A DNA stretch of 64,000 bases from Paraphysoderma sedebokerense (taxonomy: Eukaryota; Blastocladiomycota; Physodermatomycetes; Physodermatales; Physodermataceae), in NCBI GenBank assembly GCA_025602915.1, contig JAHLJZ010000060.1, positions 86,620 to 150,619 on the forward strand. The letters are read 5' to 3'. Every line of letters starts with the position of its first letter. The first letter of the stretch is position 1. The notes below the pieces were generated by a model. That model ran no database searches and was not told the origin of the DNA. It saw only the letters and a program-made list of their open reading frames with translations. Made by a program: the position numbers and the translations under genes. Positions 4,321 through 56,175 of this stretch are shown here, in pieces.

Positions 4321-4397
4321 TAGCACTCTCTCTCGAACTGTTGGCAGTTAACCGCAGTTCTCAAAACAACAAATATCAGATTCTAATTTTTTATCCG

Positions 4398-7388: not shown

Positions 7389-7558
7389 ATATTTTCAAAA
7401 TTCAAGTTAGACCATTAGAGTTGTATCATTAGTAAATTTGTCCTTTATGGTGGAAAAATAAAGTAGCAAAACTTTGAATCAGTTTACAATTATTTCATCG
7501 AAAAAGTTCTCGAGAATCTGAAATTTCATTATTTTCTATGGACTAGAAATAATACCCA

Positions 7559-25241: not shown

Positions 25242-25552
25242 TATATGATATCATACAATATATAGTACCTCTAGAATTGTCTATCATTTAAAATAAATTG
25301 TTACATTTCGTCAATATCAGCAGTATCATTACATTCATCAAACTGATTCCATGTAATGCAGAAATAATTCTGCAGCGAGGGAATAGACCTTTTTCTTTTT
25401 CTTTGGCCGTTTATTTGGGATCACGACGAATTGGTCAAGTCCGGAACCCGGGCCCACTTCACGTCTTGTCGAAGTGTAGGTCTTTTTCGTGAAAATTCGC
25501 TGCCTGATTCGAAATAATTTCATTTTTAGGCTGATACAATATTTCCAGACAT

Positions 25553-26595
25553 TCAGTAGGGTTTCCACGGCGGCGGCGTATCATGTTTTCCCTTTTTATC
25601 TGAAAACGAGTTCGTTGAACTCATACTCCCTTGGTCTGCAATATTGAGCAATCCTGATACAGAAGGGAGAACAACAGTGCTTTCATCATGGTCGAGATTT
25701 GTCGAGGAGCAACATTGGGTATCGAACGTATTGCTTGTTGTGAGGATATGATCTTGTACCGAAAATTAAAAATTCATTACTTTGCATTCAAAATGTAGAT
25801 AGATTGATATCAACTTACCGAAAGATGACGACTCGAGTGAACTTGCATATATTTGTGACATGATCTGCATATCCTTATTTTGTCGAAGTCGCTTATAATA
25901 TCTAGGCGGTATATTAATTAAACCACCGGGAGGTGGGTTGAGGTAGCCATTCTTAACATCTGAGGCAAAGTAGTATGCCACCAAATGAAATTTACGTCTC
26001 TCTTTGGTTTCAAATGATATGACTTTCTTATTGAGGGGCTCCGGGGGGGCTGAATTCGATGACGTTGAATGTTGACTTACTGAATTGTCTGTCGCTTCGA
26101 TATAACCGACAAAATCACCGATGTTTTTTGAATTTGACCACTCTAAAAAGACAAGGATGTAAATATTTCAATTTTTTCTCTATAAAACAGAACATTGATA
26201 TTAAAACACTAACTCCTATCGTCTGTCCATCTAATTATCCCTGCCTCGTCCTGGTCCCAAACGTAGACCGAACCTATACTCAATTTCAGCGTGAGCAAGT
26301 GATGATATGGCACCATTGATACATCCAACGCAACTACCTGAGCGAATACGTTTCTTTTCCTGCGTGCCGGGTCTCTGTTTTACCCGTGGATAGAAACCAG
26401 TTCGAGCAGCTTTAGAGGAATGAGATAAAGTGGGTACATTCGCAGATGGGGAAGCATATATTTACGTTATTCGAAGAATCTCAAAAAATTAATACTATCT
26501 AGTAAGATCTCAAGCGCTTTATATATCATCTTACCTTCCACTATTATCAATGCCTCCTTTGTGTTATTGACGGACCCAAAATATGTTTCTTTCAT
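25553..26595 (-). CDS. WOPR (Gti1/Pac2) transcription regulator A
   Basis: WOPR-domain DNA-binding protein, the fungal family of Wor1, Ryp1 and Gti1/Pac2. Exons (minus) are 26595-26535, 26409-26338, 26273-26214, 26142-25819 and 25752-25553, giving 238 residues. The order is METYFG-like start (MKETYFGSVNN), EAARTGFYPRV, IRSGSVYVWDQDEAG, RWTDDRKWSNSKNIGDFVGY, then the second half KKVISFETKERRKFHLVAYYFASDV. The C-terminus carries LPSVSGLLNIADQG (about 25629-25672), a motif shared with three paralogues here. Exons of 61, 72 and 60 nt match those of regulators B (64/72/60), C and D. It is convergent with GH16 copy 3. Confidence 0.85.
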
Positions 26596-27764
26596 TTATA
26601 TCGGGAAGTACAACGAAAGAGACTCTCCTATTGTTTGCGTGTTGAGAATGCACTCTGACTGTTTAATAAAGACTCAATGCGGAAGGACAACTGATATTAA
26701 AAAGTCAATTACCATCAGTTTCAGAAGGGAGACTCTATTTTTCTTTGTTCAGGTGTCTTTAAGTTTAGAATGATAGCCGAGTATCTGGTAACAGGGGCAT
26801 TTAATCGTTGTTAGTCGACCCGTTCGTCGTGAGAGTTCAACACCGGCTATCAAAGAGTAGGAATACAAGCCAATATACTGTTCGCTTCCGGAAAGCTGCA
26901 AATTCTTTGGATAGAGTTGAGAAGAAATCTGGATCTCTGTTCTGAATTGATGTAAGCACCAGAATTTTTACAAAGCGCAACTAGAAGTTCCCGTCACCAG
27001 TTGATTGGTCAAAAGGGCGCCGCTTTCAGCTCGGCAATCAGCGTGGACTGCAATTAGCTGTCGACAACGTTCGCCTATTCTGTCGCTTGATTCAAAACTG
27101 ACTTTGAAAGAAGCAACAATTCAGTGTTGCTTCTTGGTGCGCAATTGCTGTACCCGTAAGAAAACTGCGGGCATTGCCAGAAGAATCCATCATGAATTCA
27201 AATCAACGGTTGTTGATGAGTCTGCAACGCGCGGTGCCGCATTCCTTTGCATCATCGTGATACCTATTCGAATACCTGGTAATGGATTCTTCCTTTATAC
27301 TTCAGCAAATGATGAAACGTGAATATGATGTGCATATTGTGGAGTTTCGGAGTTGTAGGAGTTGCCGGATGAAGTAATTTAGCCAGATGAGGTAATTTCG
27401 AGAAATGATTCAAAATATTCATTCCATATTTTTAAACGCAGAGCGTAGGATTTTACGCATACTCAAAATATTAGTAGATACTCTTAAATAATTTCGCTAT
27501 CATCCATGATCCTTCATGAAAACCAGAAGCCTCTTCTTCAGTTCTCTTATTGCCGACATATTTTCTCAACTCTAATGTTCTATGATAATATGAGATAGAC
27601 AATTGTAGATAGCTTTATAATTCCTGTATATGGATACACGATCATCTTTATAATCTAAGCTTTCGGTCGACATTCCCCAGCTGAACATCCTCCTCGTAGC
27701 TTCGCCAGTTGTGTTTAAATAGGGCCACAATGAAGTATTCCTTGGTGTAGTTTCATTTATAAAA
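26596..27764. other. Intergenic between WOPR A and B
   Basis: About 1.17 kb. No coding family or repeat recognised. The open frame at 27005-27322 lacks support. Confidence 0.45.
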
Positions 27765-28822
27765 TTATCTGCGATGATACCAAAACGAATCAGGTGATTG
27801 GGATGGAGACGATAAATGGACTTTGGGATTTCCTTTATCTGCCACATCAAAAAGAGTCGAGACAGATGGAAGACCTGGTGAAATTTCTTCACGAAGGTCA
27901 TTTGATGGGCGGCGCATATGAGATTCCGTCAAATTTAAATTAAACTGATTTGTGCCAAAGCTCTTGATAGAATTTAAATCAGCGCCTAAGTTAACGGTGT
28001 GTTATAATTTAAAATATGAGCAGTATCGTTTCTATAGAATATCTGACAAACCGTTTGAAGCACTATCGAAGGTTTTAGAATAAATATGCGTCATAGCTTG
28101 AACATCTCTATTTTGTCGTAGTCGACGATAATATCCCGTTTCAACTTGCACCAGTGAAGGGTTTGGCGGCATCAAGACACCGTTATCCAAATCCGTTATG
28201 CTATAGTAAGCTGCCAAATGATATCTCCGGCCATCTGATGTCTCAAAAGACATTACTTTTTTGTGTAGAGGTTCTCGTGTATTGTATGATGGTGGTTGCA
28301 TCCTACTGTTGTCTACCATTTCAACGTAGCCAACAAAGTCCCCCATAGTCCGGGAACTGGACCACTCTAAACATGCGTCAGTAAAAGAGTCCATTAGTAA
28401 GGCTACCGATCATATTCGACTGGGGAATAAATTAAATAACTTACTGCGGTTATCTGTCCACCTTCTAATTCCAGACTCTTCTTCATCCCATACGTATACA
28501 GATCCTTTTTGATTGTATAGTTTTAGTGCCTTTGCGTTCGCGAAACTTAAACGACGCATATAACATGCACTCACCTGACCGGATAAAATCTTTTTCTTTG
28601 CTACCAGGCCGTTGTTTTATTCTCGGAAGTAAACCCGTACGAGCAGCTTTTGTTTAGGAATGTTGCGGCAAGAATGTTAGCATTTATAAAGAGAAATAAT
28701 TTTGTCCACAAGTTCGTCGACCCGTAAACCGAGAATTTAGAAAGTAGTATATAAATACCTTCAATTACAAGCAAAGCATCTCTCATATTATTGACTGACC
28801 CAAAATGTGTTTCCTGCATCAC
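27765..28822 (-). CDS. WOPR (Gti1/Pac2) transcription regulator B
   Basis: Second of three tandem minus-strand WOPR genes. Exons are 28822-28759, 28646-28575, 28504-28445, 28366-28052 and 27985-27765, giving 243 residues. A second ATG at 28819 aligns better with paralogue starts (MQETHFGSVNN) and may be the true one. WOPR signatures are AARTGLLPRIKQRPG, IRSGSVYVWDEEESG, RWTDNR, WSSSRTMGDFVGYVE and KKVMSFETSDGRRYHLAAYY. The last exon ends with LPSVSTLFDVADKG and a YHRR terminus, paralleling FIRR in regulator D. If the last intron (donor GTTTGT) is retained, the frame stops at 28032. Expected nuclear DNA binding is known for the family, not shown here. Confidence 0.83.
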
Positions 28823-30172
28823 TAGAAATACAGATTTCTATTGTTTTGTCTCTTCAGGTTTTTTTTTTGTTTTTCGTTGGTTGTTTCGTTTTCACAATTT
28901 TAATATTTTAATTCGAGGCTCAATTTCATTGACCGAAGAGCGGGGCAACCAAACATGAATTATAATATGGTTCTGTTCTTAGTGGTCGATTCTAAAATTT
29001 GTGAATTCTATGTGAGACCAAAACGTAAACCAGTATACTTATTTAATTTCTGTTTTGATACAAGTCTGATCGTCGGCGCCTCAACTAAACGTCAAATCTT
29101 TTGCTAGACATTAGTAATGTCGGTACCGAAGATTATGGATCAATGGTCAATCAATCACAGAAATAAATTCGCATTTAGTTCGATTATTCGCCTTCATTGC
29201 CCAATCCTGCGCCATCCGACGGTTTAATTCAGTTTGGAGAAATAAGTAAAACTAACTAACAGACCTACTGTACACAGAGATATATTGCTGTCGATAAGCG
29301 ATTTCTGGATTTTGGGTGATACTAGCAGTATATGAAAATTGCTTTGATAATGTTTGGATACAGAAATCGCTACTTGTGTTAACGGAAAATGCATCAGGCG
29401 AGAAACGGAGATGCAACTACTGATGCAGCAGTTTGTTGCTCGTTTCTCCCACATTGATCAATTAATTACATCGACTTGCTTCAATTTCAGATCAATTTTA
29501 ATTCCATTGTTCCCACATTCCGCAACGAAAGGCAGGAACAAAGGAAACAAACGCGTGCTCATGATTTCGATGTGAAATAAATTCTGACACGGGCTGTTAA
29601 GGCGGGACTGGTGACACAACGAAAAGCTTGTTGAGAGTCAAACTCTCCGGAAAAATTACTTTCGAAATGGAACGAAATTAACCATAGCTGCAGCCCGCAT
29701 TTGCCGCATTCTTTTTGCCTAAGTGATGCCGTCATGTGCGATTTGTATTATTTTTAAACGCAAACCACTTAATTGACCGATGCGTTCTAAGTTTAGTTTC
29801 ATTGCCGTCTGAAAATGTTCAGGACAGAAGTTTCAGTGCTGTGTCTATTATTAGATGCTAAACAGTCTTTGTAAGTTGTGTAACTTCGTAGGTCGTGAAA
29901 CATTCCAACATCTGTGTTTCATGTAATGGAAAGAAATGATGTCGAGCAGCATGGATAGGATTGAAACAGATAAAATTCTATTAATCAATAAGATTTCATT
30001 CTAACTTGAAATCAGAAATATGATACAGTTATGATTGAATACAACTACTGCATTTCTCATAATAAGATAACTTGAGTGTTCACATAATAAAATCTAAATG
30101 CATACTCTACTTATGTACAAACGTTGAAGTGATACTTTTTCGATATCTGTTGGTGTTTCGTCCTAAACGAGT
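28823..30172. other. Intergenic between WOPR B and C
   Basis: About 1.35 kb of AT-rich DNA with homopolymer T runs near 28860. No gene or ordered repeat identified. Confidence 0.45.
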
Positions 30173-31294
30173 TTATACAAAGGACGGAAAACTATATGGA
30201 CTAGAAGATCTGGAACGGGACCGTTGCAAACTATAAACGTTCGACGATCTATAGCTGCCTTTATCAGCTATTTCGAACAAGGTTGAAATTGATGGGAGTA
30301 CGTATTTGGGTGAACTGACAGGACTTCCTAACAAAAATGAAGTGTCGGAATGTGATGAATTGGAACGCTTTCGGTAATCAGAATTTGCAGGTAACGATTC
30401 AGGTGATAAGGGAACTATTTACGAGAAGGTGTTAGAAATGATGATTCTTTGATAGATTGACAGAAAAAAAGACTAGACTATTTACCATTTTCTTCTACGA
30501 CAGTTTTGTTCCAGAAATCTGCAGGAATATTAACTACATCCGAGTTTTTCTTTGAATAATAGTTCTGAGGCGGTGAAACTTTTTTTAACAGATTTCCTCG
30601 ATTATATTCGACCTCCCACGTCCGTAAATCTTTTATATTTTTATCTGCAACATCCTTAGGGGTGTAATAGGCAACCAGATGAAATTTTCGATTATCTTTG
30701 GTGACAAACGATATCACTTTTTTATGCAGTCTATCCCACACGGCTTTGTGGACATTCTCGGGCGATATCTCGACGTAAACTGTAAAATCACCAACCGCCT
30801 TGGAAGATGACCACTCTACAGATAAATACAAAGTTAATACTCTGCCGTTGAAGCGTTATCTCTTACTGCTGCCAGTTGAACAACTGACTAGCAGAGTACA
30901 GAAATGGGAGTGAAACTTACTCTTGCCGTCGGTCCAACGTAAAATACCAGCCTCTATTTCATCCCAGACAAATATGACACCTGTTGAAAAGAAAATAAAT
31001 TGAATATAAGTATATTGATGTAATAATTAATGTAAGCGGAATAGTGCATGGTTAAGTACCTGAACGCAGAATGGCGTGGACGCTGGCATTGACTCTTCCT
31101 TGAACTCTTGGCAATATGTTTAATCTGGCGGCTGTTAATTCAGTGATAAAAGAGATAAATGTCGTCGATAAGTAATTTGTCAAAGTAATGAGACAAGGCA
31201 GCATCTAACAGGGCGGAGACTTTCGCTACATACCTTCTACCAGTATCAATGCTTCTTCAATTGACTCAATGTTTCCAAACCAAGTTTCTCTCAT
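30173..31294 (-). CDS. WOPR (Gti1/Pac2) transcription regulator C
   Basis: Third tandem minus-strand WOPR gene. Exons are 31294-31234, 31131-31060, 30980-30921, 30815-30486 and 30414-30173, giving 254 residues. It begins MRETWFGNIESIEEALILVE, continues AARLNILPRVQGRV, ILRSGVIFVWDEIEAG, RWTDGK, WSSSKAVGDFTVYVE and KKVISFVTKDNRKFHLVAYYTPKDV, and ends with LPSISTLFEIADKG and an Arg/Ser-rich tail. It is the most divergent in its central loop (30500-30640), where a Lys/Asn-rich insertion replaces the PPGGL-type segment of A. Exons 1-3 are exactly 61, 72 and 60 nt as in A and D. The extra frame stop right after the last donor shows the final intron must be removed to reach the conserved tail. Confidence 0.84.
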
Positions 31295-33283
31295 TTTGTC
31301 TTGAATATATTTCGGTTCTTAAGGTTGAAATTTCGAAAGGTAGGTTGCTAATTGGAATGTATCTGAAGGTGTTGGAGACGGGAAGCGGGAGAGGTTTTAA
31401 ATGTAGCGATGTTCGATAAATGATTGCTATTGATGATGATGATGATAGTGGAACCTCAGACCGAATAGCGACAATAAATTAATTCCACACAAGCTGTAAT
31501 GACTTTCAACACTATAACACTCTAAAGCTGAATGTTGAGCGACCTTCGTACTCTATTTATTTCACCGCAATTTTTTTCCATGTCTTACTTAAAATCGATT
31601 ATCCTGTCGGAAGCACAAGATCCGCTTTTTAGACAACAATCAAAATCAAGCCCATTCACGCGTGAAGCAAGGGTTAATTTTTGCGTTCGGTTGAATTAGC
31701 TCCGGCATCAGGGAATACAGATATTTACAATCGTAACAATGAATTTAAGCTTAGACAATAATGCGGCCGCAATTCATAGAAACGTCGATTTATTATTGCT
31801 CCGGTGTGTGAATGATGTGTAACAATGTTTGGGCACATCGTGGAGTGGGCTTCAAGCTACTTTGGTTATTCTAAATGGAGTCTCTTGTGGTACAGAGAAT
31901 TAAAGACAAGAACCATCCTACTTGGCGATTGTCAGTTTTTAATGACCCGCTATTGTGTAACATCATGATGGAATGCATTTCCGTAACTATAATAAAATAG
32001 CCCATCAGCAACAATCAGGACGGACAACAGTATGGCACATTCTGGTAAGTTTGTGTGTCTGATTAGTTTCAACTTAAAATCTACCGGGGTCAAAAGAAGG
32101 TTCATCCGTTCGGCGAAATGAGATTTTCCATAGTGTGGGTGCAGTGCTTATCACATTACATCAACCGGGGAAGTAATTTCTAACTTGGCATACTGTAGTG
32201 TGCTCTTCGTCGCTGCTGGCATAGCTGAAGCACTAAAAATAGAAAAAGAAATTCAAAATAGATTTCAGGAACATGGCTGTTCCTTGGCACACGCATACAA
32301 GCTCTCCACTATAATTAGCACAAGAGCTTTAAAACCGACAAATACGCTTAGAGTAGTCCTAGAATGTCATTAATTTTTATTTCTATTTTGATTTTTAAAA
32401 GCCGAAACTTGTGGCTGTTGATTTAAGTGACAAATTGTAATGGACGCCCCTATCGCTGGCAATAGACTTATTTTAACCTATGTTCTTCATCATTAAAGCC
32501 ACTATTCAAGTCATATGATGGTTCCTGTCAATTAAGATTTCAGAGAAAGTATATTAAAATCGTCCTTTGAGCCAAAATGCATCAAGCTCGAATGATCATG
32601 AGGCGAAGCGGTTTTCTCAGAGTCAATTACGATTCCAGGAACAGTTCCTTAAAACTGTCTTTTCCAGCCAAATTGGATCAAGCTTAGATGATCATGAGAC
32701 GAAGCGGTCTTTTCAGTGCTAGAAAGACTTTTTTAGGCCATATGCAAATGGCGTAGCTAATGTAGCAGTATCGAGCGGTTCTCAGGAAACATTGTGGAAG
32801 ATGAAGTAGTTGCCAGAATAGTAATGGATTAAAATTATTCTACATTGCCCTCACATATGTCGCCATTAAGTTGAGTGAGAATTGGATTTACGAAATCGAG
32901 TGCGGAGTGCAATCAGTCAGTACTAATTATAAAAATGCGATCCAAGCTGATTCCTGATCAACAGGATTTCTGAAAAAATATATTGATAACACTATACTAT
33001 GTCATATTGATAATGGGATTATTATAATATCAAGTGCAGTAATTACAAAGTAAAAATCAAACAATATGTTATCAAATGAAGTAACAGCGACAGAGACTTT
33101 GCCCCGATTAATATGATGAATTTTAAATAACTGACGAATGGAAGTAAAGAAGGTATCAAAGCGACTAAATAGATACTTTAAAATGTCGGAAAGACTTGAC
33201 AGTGTTCCTCGTTATTGCTAGTGGAAACTTGGCGGTAACAAACAATGAGAACATATCATATGTCACACTTGTTATACGAATGT
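31295..33283. other. Intergenic with a possible small spliced gene and a direct repeat
   Basis: About 2 kb. ATGGCACATTCTG followed by GTAAGT at 32032-32050 looks like a short first exon. A later frame at 32207-32373 (VLFVAAGIAEALKIEKEIQNR) is protein-like, but I could not join the two in phase without an implausible 26-nt intron, so no CDS is called. Two diverged copies of a repeat of about 65 bp lie at 32556-32715. Confidence 0.4.
32556..32715. repeat. Two-copy imperfect direct repeat
   Basis: Units at about 32556-32620 and 32651-32715, 95 bp apart start to start. Both contain AGCCAAA, then ATCAAGCT, GATGATCATGAG-type and CGAAGCGG segments and end TTTTCTCAG or TCTTTTCAG. Mismatches are scattered, so the duplication is not recent. 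Confidence 0.65.
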
Positions 33284-34306
33284 TCAGTTCTCTTCGGTAA
33301 TGTCGGAGACTTTTTCGGTTTGCTCGACTTTGCGGTTGCGTAAGTTTGAGCCGCAGTTCTCATCCACGCCATTGACAGTGTTTCCGTTGAATGAGTTCAT
33401 TAACTCCTCTTCATCAGATCCAACGGGCGCATAGTGAATGGTGCCCTCTTCGTTATGGGGTTCTGGTTTTGATTGTTTGATTGTGGTACTTGCTCCATTG
33501 ACAGGTGAGGAGTCCAATTCATCGTCGTCACTGTCATCCATTTCCCAGACGATGGCATTTCCTTCATCGTCTACAACTTCGAATTTTTCGACTTGAGTTG
33601 TCTTCTTTTTGAGTCCTTGGATTTTGAATCCAAGCTTACTTGTTACCATATCAGCATAGACTTCAGGTTCAGAGAGGAAATTGTCGACAGTTGATTCGAC
33701 GAGGAGGAAGAGTCTGGTTGAGAGCGCAGATGCCTTGGAGTATCGGGAGAGCACAAGAGAAGCAGCTGTTAAAGCGGCGGTGGTGAGAAGTGACAAAAAG
33801 AGGAAAAGCGCTGTGGATGGAATGGAATCAGACAAAAAAGATGCGAGTTAGTTCAACTCGGATTGACGAGTTTGTATTAATGAGAAGGAAATAAGACAAT
33901 GATATGTTCTCTCGACAAGAATAATACTCTCATACTACCCCAGTATCATTATCACAAGTCGAATTTCCCGAAGAGGCAAAAGTGACCGAAATCAGGCGTA
34001 CTTACAGCTTCCCAAGATCCAAAAGACGCTAAAAGTGACTGCAGCGATTAAGCCGACGACAACCGAGATGACTGTGCTGCAGACGGATGCAATGACGAAT
34101 ACGGCGAGGGGGACGGATGAGAGGACGAGGAAGCGACGAAAGAACGGTTTGAATGGTTGAAGAAATTGATATTGGGAGGCCAATGATGCAAAGAGGGAGG
34201 TTGAGTGGTTCAGATATGATTTGTAGAGGGAGGAGACGGAGGACGAGAGGATGGAGAGGGCAGGGCCGATGGAAGGGTTTGTCGTGAATGCGATGAGAGA
34301 ATTCAT
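33284..34306 (-). CDS. Promethin/LDAF1-like membrane hairpin protein
   Basis: Two exons (34306-34006 and 33810-33284), 275 residues. Residues about 45-140 form a run of hydrophobic segments: FRRFLVLSSVPLAVFVIA, VISVVVGLIAAVTFSVFWIL, then LFLFLSLLTTAALTAASLVL after the splice. This arrangement, with Pro-bearing first helix and Gly-rich second, resembles the promethin family (animal LDAF1, yeast Ldo proteins), which assembles lipid droplets with seipin at the ER. The C-terminal half is acidic and hydrophilic (WEMDDSDDDELDSS; GSDEEELMNSF). I infer the family from topology and partial resemblance only. A generic membrane protein is possible. Confidence 0.5.
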
Positions 34307-35192
34307 TTTTCTTCAATCTTTATATCTTTTTGTATCTTTTTTGTATTAATATTTCCGAGGTCGGAGTTGGAAATTCGGGCCGGCCGAAATTGAAAATTTG
34401 TCGTAACGGGTGAACGGACTTGTCGTAACGGTGAACGAGAAATCGTGCCTGTGAACGGAACCAAGCGCCAAAGGGAATTTGGATAGCAATATGATTGAAA
34501 TTAAAAGTCGCAAAGATTTTATATATGAAACGACAATGCAGAGTTTGGCTGGTTTATATGCCGGGCCCTGAAAAAATAGCACACACATCTTTGTCATCCA
34601 GAGACCTTGTATCATCCACCTTGGAAGCCTCCTTGTGCGACTGTCAATTGCCTTGGAAAGTGGAACCGAAATCCGCCCAGTACAATGGCTTAGGATGCGA
34701 TGCCAGCTAATAGACAGTGCTGTGTGATGTTGATTATGTGCGAAGATGGCAAGAGAGGATCAATATTGCATATATAATGATTTTTACTGTCATTTGCCCT
34801 GTATCTCATGCATTCCGGGACTGAAGAACAGCGTAAGATAAGGCCAAGCTACCGAGTAGATCAAAGTTTGGCATCATGAGATCCATATAATTATGAATAT
34901 AACTTGAATAAAGAAATTAAATATAATGAAAGAAGAATGATGATATAATTTTTCCCCATTGTCACTAAATTTAGCCCTCTGCCGAAAACCACGCTTGCAC
35001 TGTGCTTTTGTCCTAGCGGACCCGAACCACCGAGAAATGCCCAAGGTGTAGCAGAAAAAAAAAATTACATGGAATGAAAGCGACAGATCAATGAGTTATT
35101 CAATTGGTAAAGAAGAAAGCCGCTCATTGCACACCCAAATGTCGACATAATTCAGCCTTTCAACACCAGAAAAGCGATTTGGACTCTTCAAA
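34307..35192. other. Intergenic, divergent promoters
   Basis: About 890 bp between the promethin-like gene and ATG13. It holds a two-unit tandem repeat at 34397-34440 and no other gene. Confidence 0.5.
34397..34440. repeat. Short tandem repeat upstream of promethin-like gene
   Basis: Two 22-nt units, each with TTGTCGTAACGG followed by TGAACG, 91 bp or more upstream of the ATG at 34306 on the minus strand. A third partial TGAACGGA lies near 34454. It could be a paired regulatory site. Confidence 0.5.
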
Positions 35193-37957
35193 ATGATACC
35201 GTTCGATGCCATCCCATTTGCTGCGTCACAGCCTCAATCTATTGCCAAGTCACAATCGCTCAGCCAGAAAAGAGTGTTGGGTTCCAAAGATGCTAAAACG
35301 AATTCTCTCATTTCACAGTTTTACAGCAAGGTAGCGCAAGTTGTGGTGCAAAGTAGATTAACCAATATTGATGAACGCATTGTCGGTGGCCAAATTGGTT
35401 TGGCAATTGAAAAGGTGAAAACAGCAAATGTGAAGGTCAATAAATGGGTAAATACTCTTTTCCTCTGATAATGCGCACTTTTTGAATGCAGATTTCAAAG
35501 TATAGAATAGTTGAGTCTCAACCGTTCTTCGGGTATGGTCCAAATGTGAACTGTGATGTCGGAAATTAGAAATACACTGAATGGATACATCGAAGAAGAA
35601 AAAGTGAAAGTCAAGAAATATCATGAATGTCATCAAGTTAAAACGGAAATTGTTGTTGCGGAATAATATCATTTCTGGATACTTTCTGACATTGAATTCC
35701 TTCATCTTCAAATCGTTAATTCTTTCTACCTTCAACTTCACTCACTCTTTCTATTTCCATTTTCCTGCTTTGTTATTGTCTAGTTCGCCATCGACACACC
35801 AGATCTCGAATTCTTAAAAGAAGAGACCAAATTCTGGCGTTCATTCTTCACTTCCTCATCCTCCGCAATCTCGTCCCTTTCCTCGTCGTCTTATTCATCT
35901 TCCCCGGTCGGTTCTTCCACGCAACCTTCCAATACTTCCTCCCAGTCTACTCATTTAACTTCACCAGAGCCACCGATGATGGTGATTGAAATATTCCTGG
36001 ATTTATCTAATGTACCGTTGAACCATGTCTTGCTGCTGAAATATCAAGACGATTTCAGTTCTATGGAAGATAATGACCAAGGGGGAATCAAAATTGATTT
36101 GGTTCGTGAAGGTTTGCGGAACGGCGTTAAATCAAAAGAACGAATTTCCAGTATTTTGTTGGAACGATGGGTTGTGAACCTCACGTATGTCTCTGTTCTT
36201 CATTCTCCCTATTCCAAGATTTCATAAAGTAATCAAAGCAACATACATCTTAACCTCTTTTTATGGCATATCTGCTATGGTATCCTCTTTATCGAATTCC
36301 ATGATTGCTACGACAGAGACACCAATCATACACCTTCGCCAGTTCCTGATATACCCACAACATACAAAAAGTCAATTAGTTTCTTTCGCGCCTTGTTTTC
36401 TTATTTACGACTCATCCCTTCTTATGGGCTGGTCAGAGACATACGGAGTGGATCAACGGAGTTGATGAATGCAAAAGTAGGGTATCGATTGAGTACGGAG
36501 ATTGGAATTGAACGGAGGGGTGAATGTAGTTTTGGTAAATAGACTTCTTTTTTCAAAAATCGCGGATTTAATGTTACTTATATTTTATTTTTTTTTCATT
36601 AACCATTATTATGTTTGGAATGAAGATGATATTCTCTTCTCAGCGCCGAAATTTAATCACCACCAGAGCCAAGTAAATGATACTCTGGCGCGATACCAAT
36701 TCGCTAAAATTCCAACGTTAAATGGGAACTTGAATGTCTCGGTAGAATATCGCAGCCAAGCGGCGTATCGTTTGTATCCAGCGGAAACTGTTTTAAGTGA
36801 AGAATTTGTGAATTCTAGTATTCCATCCCCGTACAAGAATATTTCAATTCAACCGTTCGAATCAAATATGGCGACGAATATTCTATCTAAAAGTCCCGCA
36901 GACTCCTTGGACCGAACTCACCCATCTGTTCCACTTTCACCTCCTATTCCGATTGCACACTCTCATGCGGCTTCGTCATCTCACAAACTATATTCAGAGC
37001 ACTCACATCCAACGATATACGGTTCTTCACCTCCCACCTCCGCACTTCCTTCTTATACTCTACCCACTTCATCTTTTTCTCGAACAACTCCTGTGACAGG
37101 GCATCCATTTAAATCACAAAGCACTGGTAGACAGCTCTATAATCAAACGGATTCTAAAACATTTGTTACCTCAGACAACGATAAAGCTGATATTCATGAC
37201 TTCTTACAAACGCTAGAGAGTTCTTTTGATTCGAACTCTGGTAGTCAAATATGGAATAAAGCCGGAGATAGAAGCAGTAAAAATAGCGAGCGAAGGAAAG
37301 ATCAAGTACGGAATAGAGATAAGGTTTGATATCATGTTTTTTTTGTTTTTCATCATTTTCTGTCGTGGTATGTTTATATATCCTACTAACGCTATTCCAT
37401 CAATCTTTTTCTTTCCAACGAATCAGCTACTATCAAATTACAAACAATACCAAAATAAGATCACTCTATTATCTGAATCCATCCTATCTCTCTCTTCCGT
37501 CATCCCGTCATCATTGCATTTTCCCTCATCCACTCCAACTAATACAGATCACACGCGGGCGTCCCCATCCACTTCGTCGCAGCCGCAATCTTCATTTATA
37601 ACCTCCCAATCTAATACGACTCCATTTTTACCGACGTCATTCAAACCTCATAATGACGGTTTTTCAAGAAATTCGATACCCGGGACTGCGGATACTCAAA
37701 TCCAACGTAACCAACAATCCAACTTGAATACAACGTCCCGCCCTAGTTCGAACGAGAGTTCATGTTCATTAAATTCAAATGAAGTCGATGCGGATTTGTT
37801 GAGTAGTGTAGACGCTGAAACGAATACAGGTAACAACACCGAAAGTAGCAATAGAAATCGACATAGAGATACCGTAGAGGGTTCTGGGAAGAGTGGAAAT
37901 GAAACGGAAAGTGAAAGTGAGAATGAAATGTTGTTTGGAATGAGTGGAATTGTATAA
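35193..37957 (+). CDS. ATG13: Autophagy protein ATG13
   Basis: Regulatory subunit of the ATG1 kinase complex that starts autophagosome formation. Exons are 35193-35447, 35784-36184, 36317-36534, 36626-37323 and 37427-37957, about 700 residues. The N-terminal HORMA domain shows SQFYSKVAQVVVQSRL, KVNKWFAIDTPDLEFLKEETKFW, PPMMVIEIFLDLSNVPLN, RISSILLERWVVNL, TTYKKSISFFRALFSYLRLIPS and AKVGYRLSTEIGIE, the expected ATG13 order. The rest is Ser/Pro-rich and disordered, ending MLFGMSGIV, similar to the conserved extreme C-terminal motif of fungal ATG13. Acceptor choice for exon 3 (after CGACAG at 36316) is the least certain junction. The family identification is secure. Confidence 0.9.
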
Positions 37958-40824
37958 AAGATTGGATGATTGATAATACAATTTATCCTTTTCATGGTTG
38001 GGTACATATTTCCGAGCCTTCATGGAATATAAATGTTTATTGCATTCAACTATGACGACGTCAACTGTTACACTCACAACAGTACTTTGAAGTGTACAAG
38101 ATCATGTCATAAGCATGTTTGTTCTGTAGTATAGATAATTTCATGTTGACGTAAGAATAGAATTGGAAAAGGAGTTTTCTACCTTCGTAGTTGCGTAATC
38201 ACTCCGTGACATCCGACTTACCACTCACTTTCCACCAGGCAAACTATCAGATACCACTTGTTACATGGTCTCATGCACAAGCGTAAGTGCATGAGTATCT
38301 ATATCATGTATTCAGACGCTCCAGAATTTGTAAAGAAAGCGCTGGTCTTGGTCAACGGACATGACAAAATGTCGACCGTCACAACCAAAATTGAGTAGAT
38401 GAATAATGACATAGCTGTATCATGACTGTCGCAACGAGAATTTCAACAGTCGCAATAGTCTTCCATGCCTGTAGATAACCAGTGATGAAGTAACGGCTAT
38501 ACACATCGACGCAAGGCTGTAACAGCAGCTCGACATGAGTGAATGAACGACTTATGGAAGCAACCTATTTTGAGAGATCTTGTGACGCAATATGATATCC
38601 GTCATCATTGACACTATACGTCGAAAAGTATACAAAGACAGTTTAGTATGATTGAGATAATAAAAAAATGTAAATGTCTTGTTCTGCTGTCGTATCAGTG
38701 TCGTATCCATAATTCGGAATTGGGCCCGTCATCCTCATCATTTCTGGTGCCGATTTTCTGGGTTGATTTAGCCGAGAGTAAATGACGAGTGGTGAGATCG
38801 TCGTCACGATTTAGACATCGGACTCGGACCGTGAAGTCTCATAATACCGAGTATTTTCTAACTGAAGAATGAATGTTGCTTGCCGTCAAGAAGGAATATA
38901 AAATACCAACATATTGAAAAGGCTTTTTTGGCAGACAATTCAAAATTTCTCGACTCGTTAGAATTTTACCCGAGAAGCCAAAGTGTAGAGACTATTTCCT
39001 CAGTTGCTTCCATTCGGTGGCATACCAATGCAACCTCCAAGTTCGCAAAAGAAGATATGAATTCTGACATCAATGAAGCTTTGCATTTGTTTTTTGGATT
39101 TGTTCGATTCGGATAGTGTGACGTAATCCATTATATCAAACAGAAAGCTGCGCGTGAATTAATCCGATAACAAGTTAACAACGACACCGGTGAGATAATT
39201 CTAAAGAACCACCCATCCTGCGTTAGCGAGAAAGTAGTTATATATTGGTATAGAATTCACTATAAAGAGGAAGCGAAATGAAGTTTAATAAGTAGCAAGT
39301 GGTGTTATTAATTGGAGAGGAGACTGATCAGACGCTACCATTTGTCAAACATTCAAACGAAAATTCAAGCATGCATTTCGATAATATCATTGAGCCGTCA
39401 ATTAATTGAATGTATTCTGGATCATCTTCTACCTTTTCTTGACATATTAAAAATCGTTGCAAACAGTAGATGATGCATTCATTTCTTGATTTCTCGGCTC
39501 GAGATGCGAGTAGTCGCTTGGGCTAGTTCGAATAACAAAGTGATACTCCTGCAAACAAAAAGCCAATATTCATACTGTAAAATAAATACGAAAAGCGATG
39601 CAAATAGCTTTCGTTGAAGAAGTTGGTTTCAATATTTGTTTGAGAGCCGTTGTGTCTAGTCCTCTATACGGCGTCTATAATTTCTAAGAAGGTCATTAAT
39701 ACAGTGAAAAAAAATCAAGAGAGTGACAATAATAATCCATACCCTTGAATGATCATCTCCATTACATGTTTCATAATGATAGGTAATTAACAAAGATAGC
39801 TGTCTAATTCCGTTTTCCGAATATTTATACAACAACGGGCTGTCAAATCAAGTGTTTCGCATTTTCTGCGGACAGTTCAAGGTTCCTTCCTGGTTCACAT
39901 ACGCTTTGCAGTTGCTTTGCATCATTAATTGGGGACAACAAAATAATGATGTGATTATTAATTTGCTACTACGTTTCTTTCAATTCCGAATTCGATTCGT
40001 ATTAAGCTTACTGGTAATAATTTGATCATAATTACACTCCTTGCGTTGGTTCATTTTTATATTCCTCTGTATCATTCGACGTTCAAAAATATGGATAGGA
40101 TCTAGGATAAAAACACCGGCGTTGAAAATTTAGCTGATGAATTGATAAGGCAGTGTATTTATATATCAACATTCACACACTCTGTGTGAGTCTTCATACA
40201 ATCTCTGCAGTCTGCAGTAAGACCATTCTTTGAACTCATCATTACTCACCAGTTTCTTTTCTCAAGCATGATGACATTGGCGTGGCAATGATTACAAATT
40301 CCGTCGCACAAGCTTCAGAGTTTATCGTTATTTGCCCATCTTCGTCCTCTGGGGAAGTGACGACCGGGAGGCAACTAACCCCTGCTTGCCGGGTGGAGCT
40401 TCCGAAGGGGTCACGGACCACGGTCAATTTGCGCCAGCAGTCAAACAATAGAGTGTCTCACGCACAAATTAGCGGACTGAATCGAGATTCGATGACGAGC
40501 TAAACCAGAAAAACATTCATTACATCCGAAATGGGAATTTCGCTATATAATGTCATACACAGGATATGAAACACTTTGCAATACATAGTGACAATTGAAA
40601 GATGCGTCATAGTCTTGGCACTGACTGCGTTAGAGAACTTTGTTATATCAATATTGATTGTGTACCCAAAAGTGACTAGAATGTGGTTGTCAAAAACGCA
40701 GTTGTTGGTACAATTGCAATTTATCTTCCTTTGTCGATTTAACGAAATATCATGAATACGCATCTGATTTTAATTAATAACAGCCCCCAGAAACCGCATT
40801 CATCATATGCTCTGATGAGGTGCG
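37958..40824. other. Long intergenic region with one GC-rich unexplained block
   Basis: About 2.9 kb without a recognised gene. Most is AT-rich with many stops. The exception is 40242-40448, a GC-richer block open on both strands and bounded on the minus strand by a strong donor (CTG then GTGAGT at about 40244-40249). It may be an exon of an unrecognised minus-strand gene. Confidence 0.4.
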
Positions 40825-41164
40825 TTATAAGCTCACTGCGACTTGATGCTTCACAATAGGAAGTTTTTCTATTTGGCGTGATTCATCGCATTGCAGCACT
40901 TTCATGTGTTCTGGGGCCCAAATGTTGATAAATTTAGACGATATGGCTAGGTCATTAAAATTAATGGGTATATATGCCATGAAATATGCCTTTATAAAAA
41001 CATAAAATACTGCGAGACACTCGGTTACGCAAATCAAACGCATTTGGGGCGAACAAAACCTCACGTACATCAAAATAGGACCCTTGTAATTCATCAAATT
41101 CGTCCGCTGTGATACCTGGCCAATTCGTCAACTCTGGACCATAAGAATTCAAGAAAAATCCCAT
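40825..41164 (-). CDS. Small two-exon protein of unknown function
   Basis: Exons 41164-41029 and 40946-40825 join in phase across an 82-nt GT-AG intron to give 85 residues, starting MGFFLNSYGPELTNW and ending LPIVKHQVAVSL. It contains ITADEFDELQGSYFDVREVL and NIWAPEHMKVLQCDES, both well-mixed globular-looking sequence. I recognise no family and see no signal peptide. The start lies 217 bp from the divergent start of WOPR regulator D, so the two could share a promoter. Prediction rests on one intron and reading-frame coherence. Confidence 0.4.
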
Positions 41165-41380
41165 CTTTTCTATACGAATCCCTTAAATCCTTGGTTGCTT
41201 TCATCTCAAACCCTCGATTGGGTGCTTCCTCAAACCGTAATAACTTTGGAAGCCCGTATTAAAGCCTCGCATCCCCTCCACAACATCATCATTTCTCATT
41301 TGGGAGATATTGCACATAACATATAAAACAGCTGTTAAATGCCAAGCGAACACTTTAGATTTGAGAGATTCACATTTGAA

Positions 41381-42390
41381 ATGAAGGAAACATTCTTCGG
41401 CTCAGTCAATTCAATGAGGGAGGCGCTCTTACTGATAGAAGGTACGGACTACGGATGACCATTTGCCATCAGCTGGCACGCTTTATATTAACATTTTTTG
41501 ACTTTACGATTCCATCCGCATACAAAAATTAATACAACAGCCGCTCGTTTGGATATACTGCCTCGTACGAAGCGGAGATTAAGCGAAAGTGATAGACTCA
41601 GAATAAAATCAGGTATGTGACCACTCGGCTCAGGTGGTGGCGTCTTGGATGCAAAAGTGCATTTTTAACAATTGACGCTCTTCAGGCTCAATCTTTGTCT
41701 GGGACGAAGGAGAAACTGGTATTATTCGATGGACAGATGGATTGAGTATGTAGATTTATTGACGTCACTTTCCGCGAAATAGATCCGCATCTAACTAACT
41801 CTCCGTTCACACCAGAATGGTCATCCTCGAAGGATATCGGCGATTTCGTTGCTTACGTTCAGAAACCAGATATTCCGGGTAGTGATTCTCCCCCAGTTTC
41901 GGAACGACTGCACAAAAAAGTCATATCTGTGTTGACCGCAGATGGCAAGAAATTTCATATGGCGGCTTATTACACCCCGCGAGACACAGCCCAGGGAAAA
42001 CTGTCTCTTCCTCCGCAAAACCTTGTAGCCATCCCTCCAAATTACTATACGAGAATACGGCAAAACAAAACATTGAATCAGCTCACACAGACTTATATGG
42101 AAATCGATGACGTCGATTCCGTGCAGCAAAATAGGGTTGCCGTGCGCAAATCCATTGACAGCAGTCGAGAAGGGTCCATGATAAGTAACCCAGAACGAAA
42201 CTCGGACACTCTGCCAACTCCCATAAGTGTCACAGATTGCTTCTACGGTCACGACATGCCAGCAAAAATGTCATCTAAACCGTCGCTACCACCAATATCG
42301 ACCTTATTTCAGATTGCCGACGGTGTCCGACGACCTTCCGGTTACGATGCCACTAGACAACCTCCTTCTCAATCATTCATAAGACGGTGA
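41381..42390 (+). CDS. WOPR (Gti1/Pac2) transcription regulator D
   Basis: Plus-strand member of the WOPR group. Exons are 41381-41441 (61 nt), 41541-41612 (72), 41686-41745 (60) and 41816-42390, giving 255 residues. Motifs run MKETFFGSVNSMREALLLIE, AARLDILPRTKRRLSE, IKSGSIFVWDEGETG, RWTDGLKWSSSKDIGDFVAYV and KKVISVLTADGKKFHMAAYY. The last intron of A-C is missing here, so the tail is in one exon and directly confirms the LPPISTLFQIADG motif (about 42284-42328) inferred by splicing in the others. A TATA-like CATATAAAA lies about 60 bp upstream of the start. Family assignment is firm; target genes unknown. Confidence 0.9.
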
Positions 42391-44798
42391 GATGCGGTTG
42401 CTCTAAAGTGGTTGTTCTGTATATTAATAGCGTGTCATGTAATTATACACATCTCATATTTAAATCTGAAGACATCTCAAGCATGAAATTTTAGTTAGTG
42501 CTCTTCAAAACCGTGATTCATGCATATTTATTTGTGTTTGTAGAATTCTTTCAGATATATATTCTTAGGTTGACAATTGAAATGAACACATCTAGAAAGT
42601 CCCCCAACCTCTGTATCTACTTTTTTGTACGAAGGAACCTATCCCTAGAGAAATGCTAGCATTTCCCTCATCCATCATATTGTCTCCTGTGAGCATCAGA
42701 AATGGTCAAATTAAAATCCAGGACACAGCCCTTAGAACTGAATTGCATGGAACAAGAACGTCCATATTACAAGGATAGTCAAATGCCTTACGCACTGAGA
42801 ACTAGTTGAATCATAATGACAGAAGAAACATTAGACTGGAATGACTAATGATTATTACATCTTAATTACGATCTAAATATTAAAAGATGACGTTACCGGT
42901 CATCGAATAAATGATCACGTTAGGTCACAGTTAATTAACTCTAATGATCAAGTTTACTTCTCCCGATCTTGATGAGTTCGAAGCGAAGTATTCCTGAATT
43001 CAGATATAATCTCAGATATTGAATGGATGACGAGATAGAGTTCTTTCGTATTATCTTCGTCGTTTCAAGTAGGTGCGTCCAATTGCGCCCAAAGAGGGTT
43101 CTACTGAAACTATATTAGTGTTTCATTCGAATACTGCGATTAGGATTAAATTTTTACTTTAACCCCTCTGTCTACGTTTACATTGACTTCATTTACCTAA
43201 TGGAACTTCATGTCTTGGCGTACTGCAGGGTTATAGCCATAGGTGGAGTAGTGAATTAACCCGTCTCGCAATCCGCCTGGTGGGGTCTCACGGTTTAATT
43301 AATCATTGGGAAATGTGCTTAAATACTGAATTACTAATCACAAACAATAAGTCAACAGTCATTCATGCCGTTCTCAATCATTCTCAATCTCCGTATTCCG
43401 CAATGGATACTTCTTCACGGATCATGCAGATCCAGCACCTAAGTTTCTAGAAACATAATCCCATGGAAAGTCAGGTAGCTTAAGTGAGCTTGATTCGTCG
43501 TTGACACATATAATTGATAATTCAATACTAACCACTGAACTTACCATGGGAATCAGGAAGGAATCAGGATTCATGCCAGCTTTTGAATATAAAGAGTGAA
43601 CTGTTTAATCAGTACTCGCGAGTGCCCCCATAAAGCTCACCGTTCAATCTGTCGCTCACCGATTTTGCACTCACACACTGAAATTTATCGGATGTTTTCT
43701 GTTCATCATGCTAAACAGATTCGGAAAAGTGTAAGGTTTGTTTGGTTTGAGTTTGCGGCAGCAATTGGGATTATCTCTATCGGAGCATGTCGATCTCATC
43801 ATTGGATTGTCCCAACCACCACATAGTCGTGGTATGTGACGACAGGTCATCAGTCCCAATCATACAATATCGACTGCTTGGGAAATATTGATCTAATTGG
43901 TTATCTTTTGCTCCGTCGGAAGAAACTTATTTGTCGGATGTTTTAAAAATGTATAGGACGCCGAATCAACGACATTTTCTCTTGAGCACAAGCAAACATC
44001 TTCTCATCCATTTAACAATGTACCTGGTGACTCGGTGAGTAGTACTAAATAATGTCTCGACACTGCTTCTTGTAGATTGGCATGTGAAATATCCGCTTTA
44101 TTGATTATTGGTATTCTTCCCGAAGTCGGTGCTCCTCGGCAATTGCCAATTCCAACGACTTTCATGTCACCTTCAGTGGCGACTGTTTGCATAATTGTAC
44201 AAGTTTTTCTGTATTATTATTCATTATCCATATGCAATTTACGACGAATGAGTTAGTATGAGGTAAACATGTCCAACTCAATCACGGATCGAACTTCTAC
44301 GCCAAACAATGCTTTTTTGCTCACGCCCGATTGCGGTCGAGGATATCCTCCTTACGTTGCCACATTTTCCTGAGGCAACTGATGTGTTATTTGTCATAGA
44401 TTCTCTCGGAAACGTGGTATTTCTTGCGCTATAGTGCAGGCACGGCAGCAGTGTATTTTTATCAGTGATAATAAATTAGTAGTACGATATTTTCAGATCC
44501 ATGGATGAGGCCCTTCTTCTTGAGCCCTCGCTTCAGTCTGCTTCAGTTCTTTTCTAGATCGCACAAAAGTATTATCATTGAGTTTTGATCGAGTTTTTAG
44601 TTCTCACTATCTCTAATATTATGACGACATCCTCAAATCGCCGCATTGTTGGGGGCAGATTCTTATTGTCCAGGAACAATATCTTTTGGCACTCCTTTTT
44701 TTTGGCCGCGTTTTAATTTTTTCGATCGTCCAAAATTCATTCCCACGACCGACCGGCCAGAACATCAGCGGGGGTTTGTAGTTTGTAGCATTAGAGCG
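42391..44798. other. Long intergenic region, no gene recognised
   Basis: About 2.4 kb between WOPR D and the histidine kinase. Short open frames near 43596 and 44004 have no family signature. The frame of the kinase extends upstream to 44646 without an ATG, so a 5' exon cannot be excluded. Confidence 0.45.
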
Positions 44799-54650: not shown

Positions 54651-56175
54651 ATGCCAAGTGCGACAATGTACGCAGCCGAAATGTCTCCGCTCGAGAGCTT
54701 CTACGGTCTTGTGCTCAATGTGAACGATGCAATGTTGGTCATCGAGGCCGCAAGAACTGGCAGAACTCACCGCATCGATGGACCACATTCGGTTCCTTGG
54801 AATCAGATACGAAGTGGAAGTGTGTTTGTCTATGCTCAGGAAATGGTATGTATTATCCTATTAATTTAGTAACAGTTTGTAGTCCTCGTACTAATTCTAA
54901 TTACGTTCAATTAAATGTCAGTCTCCTCCTCCCCCCACTCCGATACTCCAACAGTCTGAATCGATATTAAACTTGCCTACGGGAGTATTCCATGAACTCA
55001 AAATCACAGTGTCGACACTGGCCTCACCTTCACTATCCTCGGCTCATTTCTGTCCAGGCAGCACCCATATCGCAGCACCCATGTCGTGTTATCTGTTTAC
55101 TCTCCATTCCTTCCTTCATCAAGATGCTCTCCCTCAGTCACCTGCGAATGTTGGCATTCTTCAGGGAATGAGTGCCCCGCACTTACGACAGCCCATTGAT
55201 TGGGCTAAAAAACTGGGAATTAAAGTGCAAATTCGTCTGTGGCCAAAATACATGGAGTACGTGAAGGATACCCTGGGATCAGAAGGTGGAAACATGGTAA
55301 GTGAAAGAGAGAGAGCGTGGAATCGTGAATGGAATAGGGACGTTCAAAATCAAATGCCCCACGAGAGAAGACAAAGTTTGGCTACTAGTGGTAGTTGGGG
55401 TAGTGCCGAAAATGGTGCCATTGCAAATTACAATTCGAATTCATCCTTGCAAGGTTTTCACGATATTAGACATAACAGAACAACAAGCAATCCACATTTA
55501 TATTCGCAACTGCTATCGCAACAACAGCAACTACAAGCAACATATCCGAACTCGACACCGAATGCACCAACTCATTCTCCAGTGTCCCCTTCTCCTTCTG
55601 CTACCATTGCTCCTCCTTTTACTGCGCGATCTCCGGCCTCTACCTTGCCATCCCCAGCTTTGTCTTCGCCACCATCTTTCTCGCCGCGTCCCGATTTCCA
55701 TTCATCGTATTCGACTGCAAACCCCCGTCTTGCTCCAATTCTTTCTACACCGACGTCGAGATCCTATTCATACCCTCCCTCAACGCATGCTCTGACTGCG
55801 ATGACACCACCCATTTCTCCAATCGTGCGACGGGCACCCCATTCTCCCGATAACGACAAGCGAACATCGCCTCGTCCCATATCACCACGATATCATCCGT
55901 ACACTTTATCCTCTAGTCTTTCTTTACCCATCCTGCCGTCACCTGCGCGTCATGAAAGAAGTATCGACCAAACGTCATGGGCTGGGCCTTGCATTATCGA
56001 TGGAAATGTTGGAAATGGACACACTTCGGCTAGTCCTGAATCGATTGATGAGACGGCTTGGTTGGAAAAAAGCAAACACCCTATCGAATCGCCTACAAGT
56101 CTTGAGCGAGACTTTGAAGATGAGTGTAAAATCAGTTTGTTGGATACCGAAGCAAAACGGTTTCTGTGCAGTTGA
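54651..56175 (+). CDS. Protein with N-terminal half of a WOPR domain and Pro/Ser-rich tail
   Basis: Two exons, 54651-54845 and 54922-56175, 482 residues. Residues about 17-65 (FYGLVLNVNDAMLVIEAARTG, then IRSGSVFVYAQE) match the first half of the WOPR domain in regulators A-D, but on one exon with no introns. The second half (RWTDG, WSxSxxxGDF and the FHLVAYY block) is not found; exon 2 starts with a proline run instead. A middle block, HLRQPIDWAKKLGIKVQIRLWPKYMEYVKDTLG, looks globular and is unrecognised. Residues about 190-340 are Pro/Ser-rich. It may be a diverged WOPR protein, or an intron choice may hide the rest. Function is not assigned. Confidence 0.6.

What the first reader, a model, noticed from the sequence alone, without database searches (positions are those of the whole stretch)
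25553..42390. Local family of four short WOPR regulators with frozen exon sizes and a shared C-terminal motif
Regulators A, B, C (tandem, minus) and D (plus) each encode a full WOPR domain in about 238-255 residues, much shorter than typical Wor1/Gti1/Pac2 proteins as I know them. Seen directly: exons 1-3 are 61 (64 in B), 72 and 60 nt in all four, with identical phases, and each ends in a motif of the form LP-[SP]-[IV]-S-[TG]-L-[LF]-x-[IV]-A-D. In D the motif lies in the same exon as the domain, which validates the spliced tails of A-C. Most fungi keep one or two WOPR genes controlling morphology or virulence switches, so a 17-kb array suggests lineage-specific expansion. I infer that the tail motif is a partner-binding site.
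Basis: partly seen in the sequence, partly recalled or inferred. Interest (0 to 1): 0.78.

Follow-up and report, generated by a model that had tools for sequence, protein, structure and literature searches.

The report
Four compact fungal WOPR gene regulators
A fungal chromosome stretch carries four old, related copies of a small gene regulator of a known family, each ending in a short conserved helix that looks like a docking site for a gene-silencing complex and deserves a binding test.

Summary
Four spliced genes (A, B, C minus; D plus) encode complete Gti1/Pac2 (WOPR) proteins of 238-255 aa. Exons 1-3 are 61/72/60 nt in all four (B's first exon is 61, not 64), with phase-1 introns, and each protein ends in LP[SP][IV]S[TG]L[LF]x[IV]AD.

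The array is not unusual in kind: Rhizopus and Coprinus were already reported to hold more than two WOPR genes. It is old: synonymous sites are saturated or nearly so, introns do not align, and A-C are 42-49% identical to D.

The tail is the interesting part. It is about as constrained as the DNA-binding domain while its flanks drift. A low-confidence model puts a 9-residue helix exactly on it. A similar 12-mer lies in a 485-aa WOPR protein on an apparently fungal contig mis-binned in a bacterial MAG. Its core fits, in all four copies, the published consensus of helices that dock in the Sin3 PAH2 domain (phi-x-x-L-phi-x-phi-A). I propose that the tail recruits a corepressor, most likely Sin3/Rpd3; that step is inference, and the consensus is loose.

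The parts
25553..26595 (-). Gene A, 238 aa; exons 26535-26595 (61), 26338-26409 (72), 26214-26273 (60), 25819-26142 (324), 25553-25752 (200)
   Evidence: Pfam Gti1_Pac2 E 6.9e-28
27765..28819 (-). Gene B, 242 aa; exons 28759-28819 (61), 28575-28646 (72), 28445-28504 (60), 28052-28366 (315), 27765-27985 (221)
   Evidence: Pfam Gti1_Pac2 E 4.5e-30
30173..31294 (-). Gene C, 254 aa; exons 31234-31294 (61), 31060-31131 (72), 30921-30980 (60), 30486-30815 (330), 30173-30414 (242); insertion after WOPRb
   Evidence: Pfam Gti1_Pac2 E 6.2e-26
41381..42390 (+). Gene D, 255 aa; exons 41381-41441 (61), 41541-41612 (72), 41686-41745 (60), 41816-42390 (575); lacks the last intron of A-C
   Evidence: Pfam Gti1_Pac2 E 2.8e-26
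25634..25669 (-). Tail motif of A, LPSVSGLLNIAD
27837..27872 (-). Tail motif of B, LPSVSTLFDVAD
30263..30298 (-). Tail motif of C, LPSISTLFEIAD
42286..42321 (+). Tail motif of D, LPPISTLFQIAD; predicted helix at D residues 225-233 (pLDDT blocks 62 and 57)
54651..56175 (+). Gene E: N-terminal half of WOPRa fused to a Ser/Pro/Gln-rich tail (482 aa if the exons are 54651-54845 and 54922-56175, one of 14 in-frame joins listed); no introns where A-D have introns 1 and 2; no RWTDG segment, no detectable WOPRb, no tail motif
   Evidence: Pfam 27.3 bits, cut-off 23.6; hhalign 96.9%, E 1.7e-10; residues 66-190: no match

Best explanation
A-D are compact WOPR (Gti1/Pac2-family) transcription factors, probably of the Pac2 branch, made by old local duplications and all kept under purifying selection. 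Shown here: gene structure, family membership, constraint on the tail. Inferred: the WOPR domain binds promoter DNA as in Wor1, and the otherwise disordered tail presents a 9-residue amphipathic helix, [IV]-S-x-L-[LF]-x-[IV]-A-D, that docks in a corepressor, most likely a PAH domain of Sin3, bringing Rpd3-type histone deacetylase to target genes. The four copies would share this output and differ in DNA-domain details, upstream control and phosphorylation: only B keeps basic residues at both -2 and -3 of the conserved threonine (R-R-W-T; A, C and D have I/L-R-W-T).
For: WOPR fold: Pfam E 4.5e-30 to 6.2e-26; PDB Wor1 4qtj E 5.9e-22 and YHR177W 4m8b E 4.1e-17, with R-W-T-D and the following W-S conserved. 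Tail constraint: pN 0.07-0.27 in the motif, 0.17-0.37 in WOPRa, 0.48-0.69 in the spacer, 0.54-0.73 after the motif; pS 0.72-0.98 in the motif. Helix: amphipathic moment 0.46-0.51 at 100 degrees against 0.23-0.28 at 160, best angle 110 in all four; AlphaFold2 of D's exon 4 puts a helix at model residues 160-168, i.e. D 225-233, exactly the motif core. Sin3: the core fits phi-x-x-L-phi-x-phi-A, the published consensus of SIN3A-PAH2 binders Mad1, HBP1, Pf1 and TGIF1 (PMC8657803, passages), in 4 of 4; 461 of 200,000 joint column shuffles of the 12-mer do so. Motif beyond this window: L001 12-mer IPSISHLVHATD scores 26.0; 9 of 20,000 shuffles of its tail reach that, and MAFFT aligned it to the four tails without being told to. 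Biology: Pac2 of S. [quoted passage not shown] the class I HDAC Rpd3 is needed for normal Ryp1 binding in Histoplasma, and that paper says Rpd3/Rpd31 regulate Wor1 activity in Candida (PMC13132440, passages).
Against: No direct test of any partner. The consensus is loose: 610 of 20,000 shuffles of A-D contain a match, and with Ala allowed in first place C and D also match it inside the folded WOPRa helix (residues 15-22). L001 does not fit the consensus (T where A is wanted), and its margin over chance is narrow (26.0 against 24.0 for the best unrelated 12-mer). The model is poor (mean pLDDT 55.2, pTM 0.26); the helix blocks at 62 and 57 are no better than the last block of the tail at 65, and the model also draws a long helix where pLDDT is near 50 or below. 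The published corepressor contact of a WOPR protein that I saw is Tup1-Ssn6-Tcc1, not Sin3, and that paper's model has Wor1 inhibiting Tup1 repression rather than recruiting it (PMC5786334, passages). Ectopic PAC2 promotes filamentation in Histoplasma, and Entinostat-induced filamentation there does not need PAC2. The core WOPR site TTAAAGTTT is not enriched upstream of A-E, so self-regulation is unsupported. Pac2-branch placement rests on few sequences and on recall.
Confidence: 0.4

Rival explanations
1. The tail helix docks in the Tup1 WD40 or Ssn6/Cyc8 TPR corepressor, not Sin3.
For: Tup1, Ssn6 and Tcc1 were found in all cross-linked Candida Wor1 purifications (PMC5786334, passages). In yeast, short repressor domains with hydrophobic patterns were mapped for binding to Sin3, Cyc8 and/or Tup1 (PMC10163088, passages).
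Against: The motif lacks the leading Phe of the Groucho-type Eh1 motif (recalled, no call). Wor1-Tup1 contact was not seen without cross-linking, and the passages I saw do not map it to a C-terminal motif (12 of 44 places shown).
Confidence: 0.2
2. The tail helix is a transactivation or homodimer contact rather than a corepressor contact; the proteins activate developmental genes.
For: WOPR proteins can promote a programme: ectopic PAC2 drives filamentation in Histoplasma (PMC12505909, passages). The TGIF1 SID is also reported to mediate homodimerization (PMC8657803, section heading and start of passage).
Against: The invariant Ala-Asp end and the exact PAH2-binder spacing are not explained by a generic activation helix (inference); the core is not strongly acidic.
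Confidence: 0.2
3. Ordinary old tandem WOPR family; the tail motif is kept only because it packs on the WOPR domain or aids folding, without an outside partner.
For: The family is known to vary in copy number. All four tails are short and could fold back.
Against: The spacer between domain and motif is unconstrained in sequence and variable in length, and AlphaFold2 shows the motif as a separate helix, though at low confidence and without WOPRa in the model.
Confidence: 0.15
4. The array is a recent, lineage-specific burst.
For: A-D cluster together (92/97) against L001, Wor1 and YHR177W, lie within 17 kb and share intron positions. Nearby GH16 genes do show a recent duplication (92.7% DNA identity).
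Against: Synonymous sites are saturated in every WOPRa pair (pS 0.78-0.87), though four of six WOPRb pairs still give a finite dS (1.26-2.28); introns at equal positions show no match longer than 12 nt; the repeat finder lists no direct repeat of 25 nt or more in 24000-43500, and blastn finds only two WOPRb coding matches of about 74% among the four genes.
Confidence: 0.05

Closest known systems
Pac2 branch of the Gti1/Pac2 (WOPR) family: S. pombe Pac2, Fusarium Pac2/Fgp2, Histoplasma Pac2
   Same: WOPRa plus WOPRb, R-W-T-D core; L001, which I take (by recall) for a Pac2-type ascomycete protein, carries a similar tail motif
   Different: 238-255 aa against 421-422 aa in Fusarium Fgp2 and Metarhizium Pac2; WOPRa-WOPRb linker 13-20 aa by my own boundaries against 25-100 aa published; three or four introns, where Fusarium FGP2 and the L001 gene are intronless; four copies
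Wor1/Ryp1/Sge1/Gti1 branch of the WOPR family
   Same: Domain architecture, conserved threonine in R-W-T-D
   Different: Wor1 and YHR177W split from A-D plus L001 at 99/99 in an unrooted 7-sequence tree; only B keeps a basic pair before the threonine
Sin3-interaction domains (Mad1, HBP1, Pf1, TGIF1)
   Same: Short amphipathic helix in a disordered tail; phi-x-x-L-phi-x-phi-A spacing
   Different: Attached to a WOPR domain; binding untested; the hydrophobic pair that follows in Mad1 (recalled) is absent

Membership tests
Gti1/Pac2 (WOPR) family | WOPRa and WOPRb halves recognised by Pfam PF09729 or by solved WOPR domains | tested here: met
   92-105 bits against cut-off 23.6 for 4 of 4, best stretch in the WOPRa half; Wor1 and YHR177W structures matched over both halves by the A-D profile
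Gti1/Pac2 (WOPR) family | Sequence-specific DNA binding | not testable with these tools
   Needs EMSA or ChIP; the TTAAAGTTT core is not enriched upstream of A-E
Pac2 branch | Phylogenetic placement with Pac2 rather than Wor1/Gti1 proteins | tested here: inconclusive
   Wor1 plus YHR177W split off at 99/99; only 7 sequences, unrooted, and L001's Pac2 identity is recalled
Pac2 branch | Shared C-terminal motif (proposed here, not an established criterion) | tested here: inconclusive
   One outside protein (L001), 9 of 20,000 shuffles reach its score; no second protein available
Sin3-interaction domain (PAH2 type) | phi-x-x-L-phi-x-phi-A consensus | tested here: met
   4 of 4 tails; L001 and E do not match
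Sin3-interaction domain (PAH2 type) | Amphipathic helix | tested here: inconclusive
   Helical moment and predicted helix agree, at low model confidence
Sin3-interaction domain (PAH2 type) | Binding to a Sin3 PAH domain | not testable with these tools
Groucho/Tup1 Eh1 motif | F-x-[IV]-x-x-[IL]-[LM] (recalled) | tested here: not met
   Pro stands where Phe is required in 4 of 4 tails (sequences)
Gti1/Pac2 (WOPR) family, gene E | Complete WOPRa and WOPRb | tested here: not met
   Only WOPRa positions 3-55 match; residues 66-190 of E have no match

The most novel reading that the evidence does not exclude
Pac2-type WOPR regulators across fungi share a short C-terminal Sin3-docking helix that has been overlooked because the C-termini are regarded as variable; it would make them HDAC-recruiting repressors, and in this fungus four compact copies form a set of paralogous repressors reduced to DNA domain plus docking helix, with gene E as a truncated fifth.
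Probability: 0.25. Interest if true: 0.65.

Novelty: new member of a known kind. Interest (0 to 1): 0.42.

Why it matters
WOPR proteins govern morphological and sexual switches in many fungi, but what their C-terminal halves contact is largely open; two of the papers I sampled describe those halves as unconserved or notably diverse (PMC6243373; PMC11855946). A 12-residue motif shared by four diverged paralogs, and probably by one outside WOPR protein, gives a small, concrete peptide to test, and the Sin3 reading predicts a partner, a pocket and point mutations.

Tried and rejected
Looked for relatives in viral contigs by profile, by L001 protein and by a degenerate R-W-T-D-G pattern: 0 of 18 candidate stretches, 0 of 73, and 0 matches. 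Genome contigs: 27 stretches, 1 true relative (L001). Plasmids by tblastn: no match. The genome holding L001 has one WOPR gene. PDB search with the tail profile: one row at E 0.71, 4nur, which I take to be unrelated. Self-regulation by WOPR sites upstream: 0 exact sites and 1, 0, 1, 0, 0 one-mismatch sites for A-E against 0.6-1.1 expected. Hidden WOPR second half in gene E: hhalign of residues 66-190 gave 0.3%. The idea that identical exon sizes are remarkable in themselves was dropped. Literature: WOPR plus early-diverging fungi, 0 papers; tandem or expansion terms, 878 papers, of which none of the 15 listed holds WOPR; Mucorales/Rhizopus terms, 2 papers, 1 relevant; a review of fungal transcription factors has no mention of Gti1, Pac2 or WOPR (PMC5415576, term search only). 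No fold search was run because the model is of low confidence.
Full report
What is there. The window (64 kb, 40.4% GC) holds eukaryotic, intron-bearing genes; no whole genome is held for it. I rebuilt four gene models from the sequence. A, B and C lie in tandem on the minus strand (26595..25553, 28819..27765, 31294..30173), D on the plus strand (41381..42390). Exons 1-3 are 61, 72 and 60 nt in all four, every internal junction has phase 1, and all 15 introns are GT-AG of 64-125 nt. The proteins are 238, 242, 254 and 255 aa and each matches Pfam Gti1_Pac2 at 92-105 bits against a cut-off of 23.6. A profile of the four finds the two WOPR crystal structures, Wor1 (4qtj, E 5.9e-22) and YHR177W (4m8b, E 4.1e-17), over both domain halves.

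How old the copies are. A, B and C are 44, 42 and 49% identical to D. In WOPRa, pS is 0.78-0.87 in all six pairs (saturated) while pN is 0.17-0.37; in WOPRb four of six pairs still give a finite dS of 1.26-2.28. Introns at equal positions share no match longer than 12 nt. The repeat finder lists no direct repeat of 25 nt or more in 24000-43500 at its settings; blastn adds two coding matches of about 74% between WOPRb exons (B with D, C with D) and one unrelated 95-nt tandem pair at 32527-32716 (78%) upstream of C. So these are old duplicates under purifying selection, not a recent burst. In a small unrooted tree (7 sequences, 77 columns) A-D split from the rest at 92/97, below the tool's star, with the branching inside A-D unresolved; Wor1 with YHR177W split off at 99/99. 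With the fragment E added, the A-E split has only 54/90.

The tail. The C-terminal motif LP[SP][IV]S[TG]L[LF]x[IV]AD is present in 4 of 4. In the codon alignment its pN is 0.07-0.27 over 12 codons, like the DNA-binding domain, while the spacer before it has 0.48-0.69 and the residues after it 0.54-0.73; pS in the motif is 0.72-0.98. The flanks are gappy, so misalignment may raise their values. The pattern also supports the spliced tails of A-C, because the peptide is kept while its silent sites have changed. The core is amphipathic with a helical period (moment 0.46-0.51 at 100 degrees, best angle 110 in all four). AlphaFold2 on D's exon 4, with 8 rows, gave a poor model overall (mean pLDDT 55.2, pTM 0.26) but placed a helix at model residues 160-168, which are D 225-233, ISTLFQIAD. 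The pLDDT there (blocks 62 and 57) is above the spacer but not above the last ten residues (65), so this is weak support.

A relative elsewhere. The one scan of bacterial and archaeal genome contigs gave a single true relative among 27 stretches, L001, part of NYXK01000182.1 in a MAG labelled Deltaproteobacteria. It encodes an intronless 485-aa WOPR protein, so I judge the contig to be fungal and mis-binned; its Pac2-type, ascomycete identity is my recall. Its tail holds IPSISHLVHATD. Scored against the four tails this 12-mer gets 26.0; 9 of 20,000 shuffles of its tail reach that, and among 98,054 six-frame 12-mers it ranks fifth after the four tails themselves, with the next unrelated one at 24.0. 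MAFFT aligned it to the four tails without being told to. I read this as probable common descent, not proof.

A candidate mechanism. A study of TGIF1 gives the consensus of SIN3A PAH2 binders (Mad1, HBP1, Pf1, TGIF1) as phi-x-x-L-phi-x-phi-A (PMC8657803, passages), and a yeast study lists related variants and notes that such segments are disordered until bound (PMC10163088, passages). All four tails match at the same columns; L001 and E do not. Only 461 of 200,000 joint column shuffles of the 12-mer match in one register, but several consensus variants exist, 610 of 20,000 shuffled A-D proteins contain some match, and with Ala allowed in first place C and D also match inside WOPRa. I therefore hold Sin3 docking as the leading but unproven reading. 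It fits S. pombe Pac2 as a negative regulator (PMC2762075, passages) and the dependence of Ryp1 binding on Rpd3 (PMC13132440, passages). Against it, the WOPR corepressor contact I found in print is Tup1-Ssn6-Tcc1, where Wor1 is proposed to inhibit Tup1 (PMC5786334, passages), and ectopic PAC2 promotes filamentation in Histoplasma (PMC12505909, passages). A search on WOPR, Sin3, Wor1, Ryp1 and Pac2 found 29 papers; in each of the 20 listed the word Sin3 occurs 0 times.

Known versus new. Multi-copy WOPR sets are known: Rhizopus oryzae and Coprinus cinereus hold more than two (PMC2762075), and Gti1/Pac2 is named among the most dynamic families of early fungal evolution (PMC10406608, section 9). 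Most fungi keep two. The small size is real against the lengths I saw (330 to 626 aa), though S. pombe Pac2 is, by recall, about as short. The WOPRa-WOPRb linkers are 13-20 aa, counted by my own boundaries, below the published 25-100 aa (PMC4567300, passages). The conserved tail is the element I did not find described: one paper says the C-terminal part shows no conservation (PMC6243373, passages), another notes notable diversity (PMC11855946, passages); but Fusarium Pac2 C-termini are reported conserved within the genus (PMC3364952, passages) and Aspergillus C-terminal regions above 50% (PMC4567300). A search for a conserved C-terminal motif in WOPR proteins listed 9 papers, of which I sampled some by passages only.

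A phosphorylation detail. The conserved KRWTD-type site proposed for protein kinase A keeps two basic residues only in B (R-R-W-T); A, C and D have I-R or L-R. This predicts different kinase control among the copies; untested.

Gene E. At 54651-56175 (+) a fifth WOPR-related gene matches only the first half of WOPRa (tblastn and profile; Pfam 27.3 bits; hhalign 96.9%, E 1.7e-10). It lacks the RWTDG segment, any detectable WOPRb and the tail motif, runs on into a Ser/Pro/Gln-rich tail, and has no introns where A-D have introns 1 and 2. Its exon join is one of 14 in-frame joins listed. It may be a retrocopy-like fragment or a diverged regulator unable to bind DNA in the usual way.

Verdict.

Noticed in passing
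   Followed up: partly
6141-7390, 22195-23166 and 24011-25246 (+): Three GH16-like glycosidase copies; the first and third are 92.7% identical over 1251 nt (recent duplication), the middle one 72-73% to either. Only the first was checked against Pfam.
   Followed up: no
4320-4820 (+) and 49115-49702 (-): Two related short proteins whose N-termini look by eye like signal peptides, about 45 kb apart on opposite strands; 59 nt at 81%. No Pfam match for the first; the second was not scanned.
   Followed up: no
32527-32716: A tandem pair of about 95 nt at 78% identity in the long non-coding stretch upstream of gene C, not listed by the repeat finder.
   Followed up: no
L001 (NYXK01000182.1): A contig in a public Deltaproteobacteria MAG is apparently fungal: it carries an intronless WOPR gene and looks like contamination.
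   Followed up: partly
30486-30815 (-): Gene C has an insertion of about 26 aa after WOPRb and lacks the YYxRxRQN segment shared by A, B and D.
   Followed up: no
26214-26273 (A), 28445-28504 (B), 30921-30980 (C), 41686-41745 (D): In exon 3 only gene B keeps basic residues at both -2 and -3 of the conserved WOPR threonine (R-R-W-T); A, C and D have one.
   Followed up: no
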